64,000 bases of DNA from an uncultured Clostridia bacterium (GTDB lineage: Bacteria; Bacillota; Clostridia; UMGS1883): positions 1-64,000 of the forward strand of contig CANRCD010000004.1 of the NCBI GenBank assembly GCA_947629005.1. The letters run 5' to 3'. The notes below the pieces were generated by a model. That model saw only the letters and a program-made list of their open reading frames with translations, was not told the origin of the DNA and searched no databases. This document shows positions 34,790-50,239 of the stretch, in pieces. A program made the position numbers and the translations under genes. Each line of letters begins with the position of its first letter. The first letter of the stretch is position 1.

Positions 34790-34825
34790 ATTATGTTAGA
34801 TAATATATACGGAAGGATGTTGCAG

Positions 34826-36037
34826 ATGGAATTCAAGGAGCAGGGGTTTACGCCCCTTTTGCTGGGCAACGATATAAATGTATACAGCGTGGCGCGGGCC
34901 TTTCACGAGGCCTACGGCCTTAAATCGTATTCGATAGGGAAGAAGGGCGGCGCGCCCTGCGCCGAAAGCCGCATGATAGTCCAGAGCGTGGAACCAAAAA
35001 TCGACGAGCCCGAGGTCTTTATAAGACGCGTGCGGGAGTTTGCCGAGGGGCGGGGCACGGTGCTGCTTATCGGCTGCGGCGACAATTATGTCCGCCTTAT
35101 CGCAAATAACAAGGCTTCCCTTCCGGATAACGTCGTCGCTCCTTATGCCGACGGTGAGTTTCTCGAGGGACTCATGGACAAGCAGCGCTTTTACGAGCTC
35201 TGCGAAAAACACGGCATTGCCTACCCGAAAACTCATGTCTGCACCATGCGCGACCTCGAGGTCAGTCCCGAGTTCGGCGCGCCGTATATTCTCAAGCCGT
35301 GCAACGGGCCCGAATACTTTGCCCACCCCTTTGAGGGGCAGAAAAAGGTGTTTAAGCTCGATACTCTTGCCGAGCTTCGCGAGACGGTGGCTGCCGTCTA
35401 TAACAGCGGCTATAAGGATAACCTCATCGTGCAGGAATTCGTCCCCGGCGACGACACCTATATGCGCGTCCTCACCAATTATTCCGACAAAAACGGCAAA
35501 GTGAAGCTGATGTGCCTCGGCCATGTGCTGCTCGAGGAGCATACCCCTTACGGCATAGGCAACCACGCCGTAATTATAAACGAGGCCGACCGCGCTCTTA
35601 TGGACAGATTTAAGGCTCTGCTTGAGGATATCGGCTACACAGGCTTTTCCAATTTTGACATAAAGTATGACAGCCGCGACAACACTTTCAAGGTGTTCGA
35701 GATAAATGTCCGTCAGGGGCGCAGCAACTTTTACGTGACGGGCGCGGGCTATAATATTGCCGAATATGTGGTTAAGGACCATATCCTCGGCGAGGAGCTT
35801 GGCGATACCGTTTATGCCGACAAAGAAAACCTTTGGCTCGTCGTGCCCGAGAAAGTGGCCTTCGACTATATTCGTCCCACCGAATACAAAACGCGCATGA
35901 AATCGCTCATCCGCAGGGGCAAGGCGGTCAACCCGCTGTTTTATAAGGGCGACAACAAGCCCGGCAGGCTGCTTAGGCTGATGAAGCAGCACCTGTCGCA
36001 CTTCGCGAAATACAAAAAATACCTCGGTAAAAACTAA
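34826..36037 (+). CDS. D-aspartate ligase-like ATP-grasp enzyme (403 aa)
   Basis: An ATP-grasp carboxylate-amine ligase closely resembling the D-aspartate ligase of Enterococcus faecium, which adds D-Asp to the side-chain amine of Lys in UDP-MurNAc-pentapeptide for the cross-bridge. Shared landmarks are PLLLGNDINVYSVARAFHEA (about 8-27), LLIGCGDNYVRLI, IVQEFVPGDDTYMRVL (about 205-220) and GFSNFDIKYD with FEINVRQGRSNF (metal-binding Glu/Asn of the ATP-grasp). The match is from memory of that protein. The ATG at 34826 has GGAAGG nine bases upstream; an ATG 33 bases earlier lacks an SD. The next gene, 20 bp on, encodes the racemase that would supply D-Asp. Confidence 0.88.
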   Translation: MEFKEQGFTPLLLGNDINVYSVARAFHEAYGLKSYSIGKKGGAPCAESRMIVQSVEPKIDEPEVFIRRVREFAEGRGTVLLIGCGDNYVRLIANNKASLPDNVVAPYADGEFLEGLMDKQRFYELCEKHGIAYPKTHVCTMRDLEVSPEFGAPYILKPCNGPEYFAHPFEGQKKVFKLDTLAELRETVAAVYNSGYKDNLIVQEFVPGDDTYMRVLTNYSDKNGKVKLMCLGHVLLEEHTPYGIGNHAVIINEADRALMDRFKALLEDIGYTGFSNFDIKYDSRDNTFKVFEINVRQGRSNFYVTGAGYNIAEYVVKDHILGEELGDTVYADKENLWLVVPEKVAFDYIRPTEYKTRMKSLIRRGKAVNPLFYKGDNKPGRLLRLMKQHLSHFAKYKKYLGKN

Positions 36038-36056: not shown

Positions 36057-36767
36057 ATGCTCAAGCTCGGAATAATAGGCGGCATGGGGCCGGAGGCCAC
36101 CCGACTGATGTACGGCGGCATAATCGACGCCACCGACGCCAAAACCGACCAAGAACATATCGACATGATAATTCTTAACCACGCCTCCATGCCCGACAGA
36201 ACCGCCGCGATAAAGAGCGGCGATACCGCCGAGGTGGTGCGGCTGCTGCGCGAGGATGCGCAAATGCTGGAGCGGTGCGGCGCGGGGCTTATCGCCATAC
36301 CCTGCAACACCAGCCACGTTTTTCTGGACGAGGTACGCTCCGCCGTGAGCGTGCCCGTGCTTGACATGATAGGCGAAACGGCGCGATACATAGCGGAAAA
36401 TCGGCCCGACATAAAAAAAGCGGGCATACTTGCCACCGACGGCACAATCTCGCAGGGGCTTTATCATCGGGCGCTCGAAAAATACGGCATTGAGCCTTTC
36501 GCGCCGGAGGGCGATATACAGAAAACAGTTATGGATATAATCTACGGCCAGATAAAGGCCGGCAAAAAGGGCAATATCGAGGATTTTGCCGTTGTGGACA
36601 CCTTTCTCAAGAAAAACGGCTGCGACGGCGCGGTGCTCGCCTGTACGGAGCTAAGTGTGTTTCGGACTAATCACGAGCTGAACAGCTATTATGTCGACGC
36701 CATGCAGGCGCTTGTTGAACGCTGCGTCACGCTCTGCGGAGGCAAGCTGAAGGAGGAAAAGAAATGA
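36057..36767 (+). CDS. aspartate/glutamate racemase family protein (236 aa)
   Basis: A PLP-independent amino-acid racemase of the Asp/Glu racemase family. The paired catalytic cysteines are Cys83 (IPCNTSH) and Cys196 (LACTELS); the N-terminus LGIIGGMGPEAT is typical. Placed between a D-aspartate ligase and murE, aspartate is the likely substrate, making D-Asp for the peptidoglycan cross-bridge. Glutamate racemase (MurI) activity cannot be ruled out from sequence. It overlaps the next gene by 4 bp (ATGA), so translation is coupled. Confidence 0.9.
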   Translation: MLKLGIIGGMGPEATRLMYGGIIDATDAKTDQEHIDMIILNHASMPDRTAAIKSGDTAEVVRLLREDAQMLERCGAGLIAIPCNTSHVFLDEVRSAVSVPVLDMIGETARYIAENRPDIKKAGILATDGTISQGLYHRALEKYGIEPFAPEGDIQKTVMDIIYGQIKAGKKGNIEDFAVVDTFLKKNGCDGAVLACTELSVFRTNHELNSYYVDAMQALVERCVTLCGGKLKEEKK

Positions 36768-39115
36768 TACTGAGGGATTATATAGACCTGTTTGAGAACG
36801 GTGGCCTAAAAACCGAGGCCTGCTGCGAACCGGAGAGGCGGGTGGACTATATCTCCTGCGACTCAAAGAACGTCAGGAATAACACTCTGTTCCTCTGCAA
36901 GGGGGCCCATTTTAAGAGCGAGTACCTCAGAGCCGCGCAGGAGAAGGGGGCCGTGTGCTATGTGGCGGAGAACAAGCAGGAGGTTAAGGGGGAGTATATC
37001 CTCGTAGACGATGTGCGCCGCGCCATGGCGCTCATGGCAAATTACTACTATGCCTACGCATGGGACAAGCTCAACCTCATCGGGATAACGGGAACCAAGG
37101 GAAAGAGCACCACGGCATATTTTGTGAAATACATTCTTGACGAGGCGCAAAAAGCCAAGGGCGGCAGAGAGAGCGCGATTATCTCGTCTATTGACACATA
37201 CGACGGCGTGGAGCGCTTCGAGAGCCATCTTACCACGCCCGAGCCCTTCGATTTGCACCGCCATTTCGACAACGCCGTAAAAAGCGGCATAGACTACCTC
37301 ACGATGGAGGTTTCGAGCCAAGCCCTCAAGTATGACCGCGTTTTCGGCGTGGGATTCAAGGTGGGGTGCTTCCTCAACATCGGCGCCGACCACATCAGCC
37401 CCGTCGAGCACGCGGACTTCGCCGACTATTTTGGCTCTAAGCTGAGGCTTTTTGAAAGCTGCGAAACCGCCGTCATAAACATGGACTGCGACCACGCCGA
37501 CGAGGTCGCTGCGGCCGCCGCCGAGGCGAAAAGGGTGATAACCTTCTCGTCAAAGCGCTCCGACGCCGACATCTACGGCTATGGCATACACAAGCGCGGG
37601 GCCGACACCGTGTTCAACGTAAAAACCGCGGACTTCGACATGGAGTTCACCCTTACCATACCCGGCCTTTTCAACGTGGAAAACGCCCTTGCCGCCATCG
37701 GTATATGTACGGCTCTGGGGATAGATAAGCGCTATATGCTCACCGGCCTGATGAAGGCGCGCAGCAAGGGGCGCATGGAGGTCTACCAGAACGCCGACAA
37801 GAGCGTTACCGCCATTGTTGACTACGCTCACAACAAGCTCAGCTTTGAAAACCTGTTCGAGTCCGTCCGCCGCGAGTACGAGGGCAAGCGCATTGTTATC
37901 GTGTTTGGCTGCCCGGGCTATAAGGCCTACGACCGCCGCCGCGACCTCGGTTCCATCGCCGGACGGTTCGCGCAGATGGTCTATATCACGGAGGAGGACC
38001 CCGGCGAGGAGCCCGTGGGCGATATTTCGCGGGAGATAGCCGGTTACGTCGAGGCGCAGGGCTGCCCATACGAGATAATTGACGACCGCGGCGAGGCCAT
38101 ACGCCGCGCTATTATGGACAGCGGCGAGCCGACTGTGGTGCTCGTTACCGGAAAGGGTGACGAGACCCGTCAAAAGCGCGGAACCGAATATATTGACTGC
38201 CCCAGCGATGTGGAGTACGTGAAAAAATTCCTCGATGAGTACGACGTCGAGACCGGCATTGACCGAACCGAGAAGATACACGGCTTTCAGGACATTCTTC
38301 CCGCCCTGCACAGGCTTTACGGCCGCAATGTAGTCGTCAAGCTGGGCGGCAGCGTGCTTGAGGACGAGGCTCTCATCGGCCCGCTGCTCGAGGATATTTC
38401 CCTCCTTGCCATGGTGGGCGCGAGGGTAACTGTTGTCCACGGCGGCGGCAAGGAGATAAATTCCACCCTTAAAGCCCTCGGCATAGAGCCAAAATTTGAG
38501 GACGGCTACCGCGTCACCGGCGAAAGGGAGATTAAGGTAGTGGAGATGGTATTGAGCGGCAGCGTGAACAAACGCCTCGTGGGCGAGATAGCCTCGCGCG
38601 GGGTGAAGGCCGTGGGTGTCAGCGGCAAGGACGGCCGCATACTTACGGCGGAGAAAAAGCTCGCCGGCGGTCGCGATATCGGCCTTGTTGGGCAGATAAC
38701 CGCCGTCGATGTCTCCCTTATCAACAGCCTGCTCGACAGCGGCTGCGTGGTTGTGCTTTCGCCCGTCGGCGCGGGCAAGGACGGCGAAACCTTCAACATT
38801 AACGCCGATGACGCCGCCACCGAGGCGGCCCGCGCCCTTAAAGCGGACAAGCTGGTCTTTATCACCGACGTGAACGGCTTAATGCTCGATCCTGACAATG
38901 AAAAAACCGTCATTGACACCATGAACGCAGACCGCGCCCGAATGCTGCTGGACAACGGCTTTGTGGGCGGCGGAATGATACCCAAGCTCAGCAATATACT
39001 TTCCGCGTTGAAGGACGGCGTAAGTCAGGTCGAGATACTGAGCGGCAAGGTCAGGAACAACCTTATCTCCTGTCTTATCTCCGCAAAAAAGGTCGGCACC
39101 ACTATAAAGAGATAA
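36764..39115 (+). CDS. MurE tripeptide ligase fused to acetylglutamate kinase-like domain (783 aa)
   Basis: One continuous frame joining two complete enzymes. Residues 1-495 are a MurE-type ligase adding the third residue to UDP-MurNAc-L-Ala-D-Glu: P-loop GITGTKGKST (107-116), SHLTTPE (154-160), MEVSSQAL, YFGSK (likely carbamoyl-Lys226) and DYAHN. The selectivity loop reads TEEDPGEEP (409-417), like streptococcal/enterococcal L-Lys MurE and unlike the DNPR of DAP enzymes. Residues 510-783 are a full ArgB-like kinase: VVVKLGGSV (523-531), HGGGKEI (559-565), SVNKRLV, GVSGKDG (618-624), FNINADDAA (677-685), GGMIPK (736-741). No internal stop or SD-Met start separates them. The fusion is unusual; the role of the kinase half is unknown. 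Confidence 0.9.
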   Translation: MILRDYIDLFENGGLKTEACCEPERRVDYISCDSKNVRNNTLFLCKGAHFKSEYLRAAQEKGAVCYVAENKQEVKGEYILVDDVRRAMALMANYYYAYAWDKLNLIGITGTKGKSTTAYFVKYILDEAQKAKGGRESAIISSIDTYDGVERFESHLTTPEPFDLHRHFDNAVKSGIDYLTMEVSSQALKYDRVFGVGFKVGCFLNIGADHISPVEHADFADYFGSKLRLFESCETAVINMDCDHADEVAAAAAEAKRVITFSSKRSDADIYGYGIHKRGADTVFNVKTADFDMEFTLTIPGLFNVENALAAIGICTALGIDKRYMLTGLMKARSKGRMEVYQNADKSVTAIVDYAHNKLSFENLFESVRREYEGKRIVIVFGCPGYKAYDRRRDLGSIAGRFAQMVYITEEDPGEEPVGDISREIAGYVEAQGCPYEIIDDRGEAIRRAIMDSGEPTVVLVTGKGDETRQKRGTEYIDCPSDVEYVKKFLDEYDVETGIDRTEKIHGFQDILPALHRLYGRNVVVKLGGSVLEDEALIGPLLEDISLLAMVGARVTVVHGGGKEINSTLKALGIEPKFEDGYRVTGEREIKVVEMVLSGSVNKRLVGEIASRGVKAVGVSGKDGRILTAEKKLAGGRDIGLVGQITAVDVSLINSLLDSGCVVVLSPVGAGKDGETFNINADDAATEAARALKADKLVFITDVNGLMLDPDNEKTVIDTMNADRARMLLDNGFVGGGMIPKLSNILSALKDGVSQVEILSGKVRNNLISCLISAKKVGTTIKR

Positions 39116-40673: not shown

Positions 40674-41234
40674 ATGAAAAGTGTTATACTGGCTTTTCAG
40701 AACGCCGACGCGGCGGCAACTATCAGTCGGGCTGTACAGCTCGGCGGCTACGGCGTCAGCGGCGTCTGTGCCAGCGGGGCTGAGGTGCTGAGAATGCTCG
40801 GATGGACGTCGGCCTCGGCGGTTATCTGTGGGTATAGGCTCAAGGACGTCACCGCAGCAGAGCTTTTCTATAGCCTGCCGCAGGGGATGGGAATGCTTGT
40901 CCTTCTCTCCCAGAGCCAGTCGGGCAGCGTGGAGCTGCCCTACGGCATACAGAGCCTAAATCTGCCCGTCAGCCGCACCGCCATGCTGGACGCGCTGAAA
41001 ACGGTTATAATGATAAACGACAGGCCAAGTACGAAAAAGAGCGGCGAGGACCTTCGTCCCGACCGTACCGGCGCTGATAAGGAGGCTATCTCGCGGGCAA
41101 AGGCCCTGCTTATGGAGCAGGGAAATATGACTGAGGATCAGGCCCACCGCTTCATACAGAGGGTGAGCATGAACAACGGCAGCAAAATGGCCGATACAGC
41201 GAGGGGCATCCTCGCAGGTGAAATTCTTTATTAG
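40674..41234 (+). CDS. ANTAR-domain RNA-binding regulator with degenerate receiver (186 aa)
   Basis: An ANTAR-type antiterminator candidate. Residues about 1-115 resemble a response-regulator receiver, but the usual phospho-Asp position reads VICGYRLKD, with Gly in place of Asp, so phosphorylation is doubtful. The C-terminal ANTAR three-helix domain (about 132-183: [20 protein letters not shown], then [20 protein letters not shown]) should bind paired hairpins in RNA. It follows glnA by 37 bp, the known arrangement in Clostridia, and could act on the hairpin-rich glnA leader. SD GGGAGGAG precedes the ATG. Confidence 0.9.
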
Positions 41235-47853: not shown

Positions 47854-48906
47854 ATGAATATAGTAGTTTTGTGCGGCGGGCTCAGCCCCGAGCGCAATGT
47901 TTCTCTCAGCACCGGAGCGATGGTGCGCAACGCGCTTGTGGAGCGCGGACACCACGCCGTGTGCGCCGATTTGTTCTTGGGCTATGAGCTTGCCGGCAGC
48001 ATAGAGGAAGCGTTTGCTTCTGCGGTTGAGCCTATCCCCGTGCCTGCCGTAACCGATGAGGTTCCCGACCTTGAGCTCCTCCGCGCTGAAAGGGGAGGGG
48101 CAGGCATTTTTGGCAAGAATATAATTGAGCTTTGCATGAAGGCCGACGTTGTATTCATGGCCCTCCACGGCGCCGACGGCGAAAACGGCCGTATTCAGGC
48201 GGCCTTTGACCTGCTTGGTATAAAATATACGGGCAGCGGCTACCTCGGCAGCGCGGTGGCGATGAATAAAAGTCTTACAAAGTACATATTCCTAAACGAG
48301 GGTATTCTTACACCTAAGAGCGTACACCTCAAAAGGGGCGACGATATTGGCGTATGCGAGGCCGAGGGGCTGAGCCTTCCCCTTGTTGCAAAAACTTGCA
48401 GCGGCGGCTCGTCCATCGGGGTCTACATAGCCTCGACCAAGGAGGAGTTCAAAAACGCCGTGGACGGCGCGTTTAAATACGAGGACGAAATTCTTGTCGA
48501 GGAGTACATCAAGGGACGCGAGATTACCTGCGGCATTATCGGTGGCAGCCCTCTGCCGCCGGTGGAGATTATTCCCCGCGAGGGTTGGTATGATTATACT
48601 AATAAGTACCAGCCCGGTAAAACCATCGAGATTTGTCCGGCCAATCTTACTCCCGAGGATGAAGCAGCCGTGCGCGAGGCCACAAGGAAGGCCTTCCGCG
48701 CGCTCCGGCTCAAGGGCTACGCGAGGATGGACTTTATCCTCACCGAGGACGGCAGGCCCTACTGCCTCGAGGCTAACACCCTTCCCGGCATGACGCCTAC
48801 CAGCCTTGTCCCGCAGGAGGCCGCAGCCATCGGCATGAGCTACGGCGAGCTCTGCGATGAGCTTATCCGCGTTTCGCTCGGGGAAAGCGAGGCCGCCGAT
48901 GCTTAA
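47854..48906 (+). CDS. ddl: D-alanine-D-alanine ligase (350 aa)
   Basis: An ATP-grasp ligase making D-Ala-D-Ala for peptidoglycan. Seen are VLCGGLSPERNVSLSTGAMV (N-terminal loop), MALHGADGENGRIQAAFDLL, GIKYTGSGYLGSAVAMNK, KTCSGGSSIGVY (ATP loop) and YCLEANTLPGMTPTSLVPQEA (metal-binding Glu/Asn). The residues TGSGYLGSA in the D-Ala site are of the D-Ala type, and no vancomycin-resistance neighbours are present. Its last codons overlap murF by 8 bp, giving the conserved ddl-murF pair. Confidence 0.95.
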   Translation: MNIVVLCGGLSPERNVSLSTGAMVRNALVERGHHAVCADLFLGYELAGSIEEAFASAVEPIPVPAVTDEVPDLELLRAERGGAGIFGKNIIELCMKADVVFMALHGADGENGRIQAAFDLLGIKYTGSGYLGSAVAMNKSLTKYIFLNEGILTPKSVHLKRGDDIGVCEAEGLSLPLVAKTCSGGSSIGVYIASTKEEFKNAVDGAFKYEDEILVEEYIKGREITCGIIGGSPLPPVEIIPREGWYDYTNKYQPGKTIEICPANLTPEDEAAVREATRKAFRALRLKGYARMDFILTEDGRPYCLEANTLPGMTPTSLVPQEAAAIGMSYGELCDELIRVSLGESEAADA

Positions 48907-50239
48907 AATGACGTTTGCCGAGGCTGCCGCCGCTTGCGGCGGAAAGTACAGCGGCCCCGAGGATATGCTTGCCTCTCCGCTTGCCTCGGTCTTTACCGAC
49001 AGCCGAAGCGCGTGCGAAAACGGGCTTTTTGTCTGCATAAAGGGCGAGAGGGCGGACGGCCATGACTTTGCCGCCGCCGCCGCCGAAAAGGGGGCCGTGT
49101 GCCTCGCTGAAAGGGAGCTTGACGTTCCAAATATTTTGGTTGAAAACACCGTGGAAGCTTTGCAAAAAATTGCCGCGGCCTACCGAAGTAGCCTTGGCGT
49201 GAAAATCGTCGGCATAACCGGAAGCGTGGGCAAAACCACCTGCAAGGAGATTGTCGCCTCGGTGTTGGCGCAAAAATACAGGGTGCATAAGACGCTTGGG
49301 AATTTCAATAACGAGATAGGCCTGCCGCTGACGCTGCTTGCCATGACGGCCGAGACCGAGGCCGCCGTCATCGAAATGGGTATGAGCGACTTTTGCGAAA
49401 TGCGGCTGTTGAGCTCCATTGCCCGCCCCGATATATGCGTTATGACCAATATCGGCTTTTCACACATGGAGATTCTCGGCTCACAGCAGGGCATACTTCA
49501 GGCCAAGTGCGAAATTTTTGAGTATATGGCTCCCGACGCACCCGCATTCCTTAACGGCGACGACGCTCTGCTTCGCACCGTAAAACGTGAAAACCTTCGG
49601 TTTTTCGGCTTCGGGGAGGATAACGATATCCGCGTGACCGACTTTACGGACTTCGGTCTCAAGGGCAGCGGCGGGGTAATTACCGCGGGCGGCAAAAACA
49701 TACCGTTCCGTCTTACTATACCGGGCCGCCACCTTGCGGGCTCCGCGGCGGCGGCAGCGGGTGTGGGGCTTGAGCTGGGCCTCACGACGGAGGAGATATC
49801 GGCGGGACTTTCCGCAGCAGAAACGATAAGCGGCCGTGTGAATATAGTCGAAAGAGGCGGCCTGCTGATAATTGACGACTGCTACAACGCCGCTCCGGCC
49901 TCGATGAAGGCGGGCATAGACCTTCTTGTCAGCTCGGGCAGGCCGACTGTCGCTATTCTTGGCGATATGGGCGAGCTCGGTCCGGCCGCACCCGTGCTCC
50001 ATGCCGAGGTCGGCGCATACGCCGCAAAGGCCGGCGTCGGTATCGTTCTCGCAGTAGGCCCCCTTTCCGAAAGTATTGCTCGCGCCTGCGCCGAAAACGG
50101 CGGCAAGGCCGCGCACTTCAAGGACATAGACTCCCTGCTCCTCGAGCTTGACGCATACTTGCCCGAGGGCTGTGCCGTTCTTGTTAAAGCCTCGCACTTT
50201 ATGGGCTTCCCCCGTGTGGTAGAGGCTCTTGGAAAATAA
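48899..50239 (+). CDS. murF: UDP-MurNAc-tripeptide-D-alanyl-D-alanine ligase, MurF (446 aa)
   Basis: Adds the D-Ala-D-Ala dipeptide to the nucleotide-linked tripeptide, the last cytoplasmic stem-peptide step. P-loop GITGSVGKTT (105-114), HKTLGNFNNEIGLPLTLL, EMGMSDFCEM, CVMTNIGFSHMEILGS, IDDCYNAAPASM and ILGDMGELG are all MurF hallmarks. The ATG at 48899 lies inside the end of ddl, so translation is coupled. It should accept the tripeptide made by the MurE fusion encoded at 36.8 kb. Confidence 0.96.
   Translation: MLKMTFAEAAAACGGKYSGPEDMLASPLASVFTDSRSACENGLFVCIKGERADGHDFAAAAAEKGAVCLAERELDVPNILVENTVEALQKIAAAYRSSLGVKIVGITGSVGKTTCKEIVASVLAQKYRVHKTLGNFNNEIGLPLTLLAMTAETEAAVIEMGMSDFCEMRLLSSIARPDICVMTNIGFSHMEILGSQQGILQAKCEIFEYMAPDAPAFLNGDDALLRTVKRENLRFFGFGEDNDIRVTDFTDFGLKGSGGVITAGGKNIPFRLTIPGRHLAGSAAAAAGVGLELGLTTEEISAGLSAAETISGRVNIVERGGLLIIDDCYNAAPASMKAGIDLLVSSGRPTVAILGDMGELGPAAPVLHAEVGAYAAKAGVGIVLAVGPLSESIARACAENGGKAAHFKDIDSLLLELDAYLPEGCAVLVKASHFMGFPRVVEALGK

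What the first reader, a model, noticed from the sequence alone, without database searches (positions are those of the whole stretch)
36764..39115. MurE fused in frame to a complete acetylglutamate kinase-like domain
A single 783-codon frame carries all MurE motifs (P-loop 107-116, TTPE, likely carbamoyl-Lys, selectivity loop) and then all ArgB-type motifs (KLGG, HGGGKEI, GKDG, NINADD, GGMIPK) in the right order. Both halves look intact. ArgB normally phosphorylates N-acetyl-L-glutamate for arginine/ornithine synthesis and has no known place on a Mur ligase. Options: (a) the kinase phosphorylates the free alpha-carboxyl of the N-acylated D-Glu in the MurE substrate or product, priming amidation; (b) it commits flux to ornithine used at position 3; (c) an unrelated housekeeping ArgB was captured by fusion. 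All three are inference.
Basis: partly seen in the sequence, partly recalled or inferred. Interest (0 to 1): 0.8.

Follow-up and report, generated by a model that had tools for sequence, protein, structure and literature searches.

The report
Wall-building enzyme fused to ornithine-pathway kinase
Dozens of gut-type Clostridia carry one protein that joins a second, non-standard cell-wall ligase (MurE2) to an enzyme that starts ornithine synthesis, beside genes for adding D-aspartate, which suggests a dedicated supply line for an alternative ornithine-containing cell wall that nobody seems to have described.

Summary
Window 36764-39115 encodes one 783-aa protein: a complete MurE-type ligase (1-495) joined to a complete acetylglutamate kinase (502-783). 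It is not an artefact: the same fusion is found in 54 distinct genomes, mostly Oscillospirales, and has a single origin. It sits in an operon asl (D-Asp-ligase-like ATP-grasp) - racD-like racemase - murE2-argB. The genome keeps a separate mDAP-type murE (DNPR) and a separate argB beside argC, so both halves are second copies. The ligase half lacks the mDAP motif (EEDPG instead of DNPR). Its stand-alone relatives lie beside arginase, diaminobutyrate transaminase or an ornithine-racemase-like gene. The kinase half keeps every catalytic residue (dN/dS 0.03-0.08) but has lost arginine-feedback residues that are 91-100% conserved in stand-alone ArgBs. Best reading: an accessory ligase for L-ornithine (or a similar short diamino acid) with its own arginine-insensitive NAG kinase, feeding an ornithine/D-Asp peptidoglycan. 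Substrate, arginine insensitivity and wall chemistry are inferred, not shown. One clade has degraded the kinase, so it is useful but not essential. No earlier description of the fusion was found.

The parts
34793..36037 (+). asl: ATP-grasp carboxylate-amine ligase, D-aspartate-ligase-like (414 aa)
   Evidence: 38-45% identity over at least 94% of its length to carboxylate--amine ligases of L. curvatus (beside an amino acid racemase), L. fermentum, L. crispatus and a Subdoligranulum record. No Pfam hit; weak CPS-like NCBIfam hits only.
36057..36767 (+). racD-like Asp/Glu-family amino acid racemase (236 aa); its stop overlaps the murE2 start by 4 bases (ATGA, 36764-36767)
   Evidence: TIGR00035 201.9 bits (cut-off 93.1); also passes cysteate racemase NF052483 205.4 (cut-off 190), so the exact substrate is ambiguous. 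Overlap read directly.
36764..38248 (+). MurE2 half, residues 1-495: UDP-MurNAc-tripeptide-synthetase-type Mur ligase, second copy in the genome
   Evidence: TIGR01085 above cut-off; not above any DAP or Lys equivalog cut-off. Housekeeping murE lies at G000:C11 in the dcw region.
37991..38005 (+). selectivity loop EEDPG (residues 410-414) in place of the mDAP motif DNPR
   Evidence: alignment with housekeeping and relative MurEs; role of DNPR from PMC3829189
38258..38314 (+). junction helix, residues 499-517: the MurE2 C-terminal helix (482-496) runs straight into the N-helix of the NAGK half
   Evidence: AlphaFold2 model, helices 482-496 and 499-517; block 501-510 pLDDT 54; alignment to 2bty
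38267..39112 (+). ArgB (N-acetyl-L-glutamate kinase) half, residues 502-783
   Evidence: TIGR00761 224.9 bits; catalytic/substrate residues K526, G528, G529, H559-G562, R583, N678, N680, D682, K741 conserved (95% or more) in fused and stand-alone ArgBs
38303..39091 (+). lost arginine-feedback positions: A514 (Y15 in T. maritima NAGK), C770 (E266), K776 (G272)
   Evidence: Y, E and G are 91, 100 and 100% conserved in 22 non-decayed stand-alone/reference ArgBs; in 54 fused ArgBs E is 43% and Gly is not among the residues found at the third position

Best explanation
The protein is a bifunctional enzyme of an accessory peptidoglycan-precursor pathway. MurE2 (a second MurE, not mDAP-type) adds a short diamino acid without a distal carboxylate, most likely L-ornithine, to UDP-MurNAc-L-Ala-D-Glu. 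The fused ArgB half phosphorylates N-acetyl-L-glutamate, the committed step to ornithine, but is not shut off by arginine, so ornithine for the wall is made even when the ordinary ArgB is inhibited. The ATP-grasp ligase and racemase encoded upstream make D-Asp and attach it to the side chain of residue 3, as AslA/RacD do in Lactococcus (A4-type cross-bridge). Shown here: architecture, conservation, operon, second copies, loss of DNPR and of the Arg-site residues, catalytic residues kept, neighbour genes. Inferred: substrates, arginine insensitivity, D-Asp addition, wall chemistry.
For: Selectivity loop EEDPG lacks the N and R that bind the mDAP carboxylate; the housekeeping MurE is DNPR in 28 of 30 sequences checked. 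Stand-alone MurE2 genes are directly followed by an arginase-like gene in 15 of 28 genomes of one genus, with other ureohydrolases in 3; by diaminobutyrate transaminase (EctB, above cut-off) in 3 genomes of 2 families; and one asl-racemase-murE2 operon carries an ornithine-racemase-like gene. Same asl-racemase-murE2 order across families. Fused ArgB is monophyletic (100/99), with catalytic residues kept and Arg-site residues lost; changes at C. glutamicum G287/H268/E19 give feedback-resistant NAGK and raise ornithine (PMC6962107, PMC10464499). dN/dS 0.03-0.09 for both halves. L. fermentum, which has L-Orn in its stem peptide (PMC4155827, PMC9371310), has an Asl 38% identical to this one. In most degraded-ArgB genomes checked a second type of argC-J-B-D set is present.
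Against: An mDAP-type MurE is also present, so why a second wall chemistry is needed is unknown. ArgB alone does not make ornithine; argC, argD and argJ must come from the ordinary operon, so the fusion cannot channel directly. One clade (12 loci) has degraded or strongly diverged kinase halves and other lineages lost it entirely, and two of eight checked degraded genomes have no extra arg operon, so the kinase is dispensable. Four class-specific positions (S530, K563, Y582, D683) could mean a changed substrate. Arginase calls are below the equivalog cut-off (197-208 vs 227.6 bits). No peptidoglycan analysis of a fusion carrier was found.
Confidence: 0.6

Rival explanations
1. MurE2 is a real alternative ligase (Lys, Orn or Dab) but the fused ArgB is just a second NAG kinase for arginine or polyamine synthesis that happens to be fused; the two activities are not linked in metabolism.
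For: A separate argB is nearly always present, so the fused one could be a spare isoenzyme; the kinase half has been degraded or lost several times without loss of MurE2.
Against: Single ancient fusion kept across at least 54 genomes with tight conservation; the independent MurE2-arginase and MurE2-diaminobutyrate-transaminase pairs follow the same logic.
Confidence: 0.15
2. The kinase half serves mainly as an oligomerisation or allosteric (arginine- or PII-type) module for MurE2: the N-helix and C-terminal part hold the ligase in an NAGK-like ring, and catalysis is secondary.
For: The degraded clade keeps the N-helix and the last ~70 residues while losing the catalytic core; the N-helix is what joins NAGK dimers into hexamers (PMC3329491); the MurE2 C-terminal helix runs straight into it.
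Against: Catalytic residues are conserved throughout the 54 fusions, which is not expected of a scaffold; the Arg-site residues are lost, so arginine sensing through the known site is unlikely.
Confidence: 0.1
3. The kinase has changed substrate and phosphorylates a cell-wall precursor or another N-acylated acidic amino acid.
For: Y582 and D683 are fixed in 54 of 54 fusions, K563 and S530 nearly so; stand-alone ArgBs mostly have L, T, P and N there.
Against: R583, N678, N680 and the HGGG loop, expected to hold N-acetyl-L-Glu (established NAGK structures), are unchanged; MurE already phosphorylates the gamma-carboxyl of D-Glu itself, so a kinase for that group would be redundant.
Confidence: 0.08
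4. MurE2 does not act in peptidoglycan but in a soluble amide or storage compound built from D-Asp and a diamino acid.
For: A normal MurE is present besides MurE2 in 30 of 33 checked genomes.
Against: MurE2 scores above the murE subfamily cut-off and keeps MurE motifs; in G279 and G121 (99% complete) MurE2 is the only MurE found; Asl/RacD act on wall precursors in lactic acid bacteria (PMC4155827).
Confidence: 0.07

Closest known systems
AslA/RacD of Lactococcus lactis and Aslfm of Enterococcus faecium (D-Asp cross-bridge)
   Same: ATP-grasp ligase plus amino-acid racemase in one operon (PMC4155827; L. curvatus pair seen)
   Different: here joined by a second, non-mDAP MurE and an ArgB fusion, in organisms that also have an mDAP-type MurE
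L-Orn peptidoglycan of Limosilactobacillus fermentum
   Same: organism with L-Orn at position 3 (PMC4155827, PMC9371310) and an Asl 38% identical to this one
   Different: no ArgB fusion known; its MurE was not available here for comparison
L-Lys-adding MurE (S. aureus 4c12/4c13; E. faecalis)
   Same: loss of the Arg of DNPR; acidic side-chain pocket in S. aureus; wall residue set partly by the free amino-acid pool (PMC3829189)
   Different: motif EEDPG instead of DNPA/DDPA; 36% identity to E. faecalis MurE; below the L-Lys ligase cut-off (343.6 vs 536 bits)
Arginine-inhibited hexameric NAG kinases (T. maritima 2bty, P. aeruginosa 2buf)
   Same: N-helix and full kinase core
   Different: arginine-site residues lost; fused to a Mur ligase
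Known fusions of the parts: MurE-MurF (8f5d, NF008896), NAGS-NAGK, yeast Arg5,6
   Same: each half is known to tolerate fusion with a pathway neighbour
   Different: those join steps of one pathway; this joins two different pathways

Membership tests
MurE (UDP-MurNAc-tripeptide synthetase) | sequence above the murE subfamily cut-off, with P-loop, TTPE and Mur ligase middle and C-terminal domains | tested here: met
   TIGR01085 305.7 vs 257.3; Pfam domains; motifs
MurE (UDP-MurNAc-tripeptide synthetase) | ligates a diamino acid to UDP-MurNAc-L-Ala-D-Glu | not testable with these tools
   needs enzyme assay
mDAP-adding MurE | DNPR motif | tested here: not met
   EEDPG at this place; the housekeeping paralogue has DNPR
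L-Lys-adding MurE (PRK14022) | equivalog cut-off 536 bits | tested here: not met
   343.6 bits
N-acetyl-L-glutamate kinase (ArgB) | sequence above the argB equivalog-domain cut-off and intact catalytic residues | tested here: met
   224.9 vs 151.3 bits; residues conserved
N-acetyl-L-glutamate kinase (ArgB) | phosphorylates N-acetyl-L-glutamate | not testable with these tools
   needs enzyme assay
Arginine-inhibited NAGK | N-helix plus arginine-site residues (Y15, E266, G272 in T. maritima numbering) | tested here: not met
   helix present, residues lost; equating G272 with C. glutamicum G287 rests on motif spacing
D-aspartate ligase (Asl) | full-length similarity to a lactobacillar carboxylate-amine ligase encoded with an amino acid racemase | tested here: met
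   38-40% identity, racemase adjacent in L. curvatus and here; no curated model in the libraries used, and D-Asp activity itself is untested
Aspartate racemase (RacD) | asp_race subfamily cut-off and Asp specificity | tested here: inconclusive
   above TIGR00035, but also above cysteate racemase NF052483
A4-beta (L-Orn-D-Asp) peptidoglycan | chemical composition of the wall | not testable with these tools
   no published analysis of a fusion carrier found

The most novel reading that the evidence does not exclude
These bacteria build two peptidoglycan precursors side by side, an mDAP one and an ornithine/D-Asp one, and have welded a feedback-proof ornithine-pathway kinase onto the ligase that makes the second, so that wall chemistry is set by a dedicated metabolic valve; in other lineages the same ligase is paired with arginase or with diaminobutyrate synthesis.
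Probability: 0.45. Interest if true: 0.8.

Novelty: new variant of a known kind. Interest (0 to 1): 0.64.

Why it matters
If right, dozens of common gut Clostridia carry an undescribed second peptidoglycan pathway whose third residue (Orn or Dab) and D-Asp branch would change cross-linking, endolysin sensitivity and host NOD1/NOD2 sensing. Wall types of many such genera are blank in a recent survey of the gut peptidoglycome (PMC11382707). It would also be a rare case in which an amino-acid-supply enzyme is fused to a wall ligase, making the idea that precursor pools decide wall chemistry (PMC3829189) directly testable.

Tried and rejected
Sequencing error or chimera: excluded by 54 genomes. 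Captured housekeeping argB: excluded by the second argB and the tree. Looking for fusion genomes without an arginine pathway, to uncouple the kinase from ornithine: G416 lacked separate argB/J/C hits but has argG at a contig end, so gaps are likelier than absence; not used. G445, which lacks argB/J/C/G, has MurE2 without ArgB: consistent, but one case. A shallow AlphaFold2 run (6 rows, pLDDT 66.6) was replaced by a 43-row one. Paper searches for a MurE-ArgB fusion found nothing relevant; the library holds only open-licence papers. The E. faecium Aslfm sequence as remembered was treated as a lead only; lactobacillar records fetched by search were used instead. Collinsella MurE (EDPA motif) was considered as an ornithine anchor, but its wall type could not be confirmed in the papers held, so it is not used.

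Full report
CHECK OF THE OBSERVATION. The frame 36764-39115 (+) is a single 783-codon gene. Pfam finds Mur_ligase_M, Mur_ligase_C and AA_kinase in that order. NCBIfam places the first half above the murE subfamily cut-off but below every DAP or Lys equivalog cut-off, and the second half well above the argB cut-off. PDB relatives are MurE for 23-475 and acetylglutamate kinase for 504-782.

GENOME CONTEXT. The window lies in a 2.04-Mb, 97% complete genome. That genome has a separate murE in the dcw region with the mDAP motif DNPR, and a separate argB next to argC. Both halves of the fusion are therefore second copies. argJ and argG are also present. Upstream lie an ATP-grasp ligase (34793-36037) and an Asp/Glu-type racemase (36057-36767) whose stop overlaps the murE2 start as ATGA. 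Downstream, 188 bases away, is glnA, then an ANTAR protein, dapF and LL-DAP aminotransferase.

DISTRIBUTION. Seven of eight genomes of the genus have the fusion. A scan of one genome per species and local annotation give 54 distinct genomes with an intact fusion, including Pseudoflavonifractor capillosus and P. phocaeensis, [Clostridium] viride DSM 6836, Evtepia, Lawsonibacter and Candidatus Avimonoglobus. Where the contig allows, the order is nearly always asl - racemase - murE2-argB. Stand-alone MurE2 occurs more widely in the class and in other classes of the phylum, often with asl and the racemase, for instance in Clostridium paraputrificum (L156). No fusion was found outside the class among 398 genomes drawn from the phylum. 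The 54 fused ArgB domains form one clade (support 100/99), so the fusion most likely arose once.

WHAT THE UPSTREAM GENES ARE. The ATP-grasp protein has no Pfam match but is 38-40% identical over nearly its whole length to carboxylate--amine ligases of lactobacilli. In L. curvatus that gene sits next to an amino acid racemase, like aslA-racD in Lactococcus (PMC4155827). L. fermentum, whose stem peptide carries L-ornithine (PMC4155827, PMC9371310), has such a ligase too. The racemase passes the asp_race cut-off but also the cysteate racemase cut-off, so Asp is likely, not proven.

THE LIGASE HALF. In MurE the DNPR motif binds the distal carboxylate of mDAP, and its Arg is replaced in the Lys enzyme (PMC3829189). 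The fusions and their closest stand-alone relatives sampled have E-[ED]-D-[PSA]-[GA]-type sequences there; E. faecalis Lys-MurE has DDPA. In 33 genomes with MurE2 checked, 30 also have a second MurE, and of the 30 non-MurE2 sequences fetched 28 show DNPR. In two 99%-complete genomes, G279 and G121, MurE2 is the only MurE found. So MurE2 is probably an accessory ligase for a diamino acid without a distal carboxylate.

WHICH DIAMINO ACID. Neighbours of stand-alone MurE2 genes are telling. In one genus 15 of 28 genomes have an arginase-like gene directly downstream, and three have another ureohydrolase. The arginase-like proteins match arginase best but stay below the equivalog cut-off. In three genomes from two families a diaminobutyrate transaminase, above its cut-off, follows within 35 bases. 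In another, an ornithine-racemase-like gene lies upstream of asl (351.6 bits, cut-off 480). Arginase yields ornithine, EctB yields diaminobutyrate, and ArgB is the committed step to ornithine. The simplest common theme is supply of the residue that MurE2 adds. Neighbourhood counts within one genus are not independent, but the different partner types are.

THE KINASE HALF. K526, G528, G529, H559-G562, R583, N678, N680, D682 and K741 are kept in fused and stand-alone ArgBs alike. dN/dS is 0.03-0.08. Three positions of the arginine-feedback site, 91-100% conserved in 22 non-decayed stand-alone or reference ArgBs, are lost or loosened in the fusions. At the third, a Gly that by motif spacing matches G287 of C. 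glutamicum, the fusions have S, V, K, T or A; G287D there relieves feedback and raises ornithine (PMC6962107, PMC10464499). Arginine insensitivity is therefore predicted, not shown. Y582, D683, K563 and S530 are fixed or nearly fixed only in fusions; what they do is unknown.

DECAY CASES. Twelve loci (Flintibacter muris and relatives) have kinase halves that lost the core but keep the N-helix and the last ~70 residues, or have diverged strongly. In six of eight such genomes checked an argC-J-B-D set of a different type is present, while the older stand-alone argB decays in those where it was still seen beside it. Other lineages dropped ArgB altogether. The kinase is thus useful but replaceable, which fits a supply role and does not fit an essential catalytic link with MurE2.

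STRUCTURE. A model from 43 sequences has mean pLDDT 89.4; the MurE2 C-terminal helix (482-496) is followed at once by the NAGK N-helix (499-517). Both halves match their crystal structures. The model says nothing on oligomer or activity.

CONCLUSION. A real, conserved, apparently undescribed fusion. Most likely it is an accessory ornithine-type MurE with its own arginine-insensitive NAG kinase in a D-Asp cross-bridge operon (confidence 0.6). The chemistry is inference until wall analysis or enzyme assays are done.

Noticed in passing
L178, L180, L182, L184, L186 versus L179, L181, L183, L185, L187: Relatives with a degraded fused ArgB carry a second argC-J-B-D set of another type (with an NhaC/ArcD-like transporter nearby in L178), while the argB of the older arg operon is itself losing its P-loop (for example RYDSGA for KYGGNA).
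   Followed up: partly
L083 11872-13116, L084 4344-5588 (-), L088 10191-11435: Diaminobutyrate--2-oxoglutarate transaminase (EctB family) directly downstream of MurE2; in G279 (L088) MurE2 is the only MurE found, hinting at diaminobutyrate peptidoglycan in Clostridia.
   Followed up: partly
L190-L206: Arginase-like or other ureohydrolase genes touching or overlapping MurE2 in a small-genome clostridial genus (family f40).
   Followed up: partly
L072 5804-6910: Ornithine-racemase-like protein (351.6 bits, cut-off 480) upstream of asl-racemase-murE2.
   Followed up: no
window 40674-41234: ANTAR-domain protein right after glnA, a possible antiterminator of nitrogen genes.
   Followed up: no
window 47854-50239: D-Ala-D-Ala-ligase-like and MurF-like genes about 9 kb downstream of the fusion, so several wall genes cluster here away from the dcw region.
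   Followed up: no
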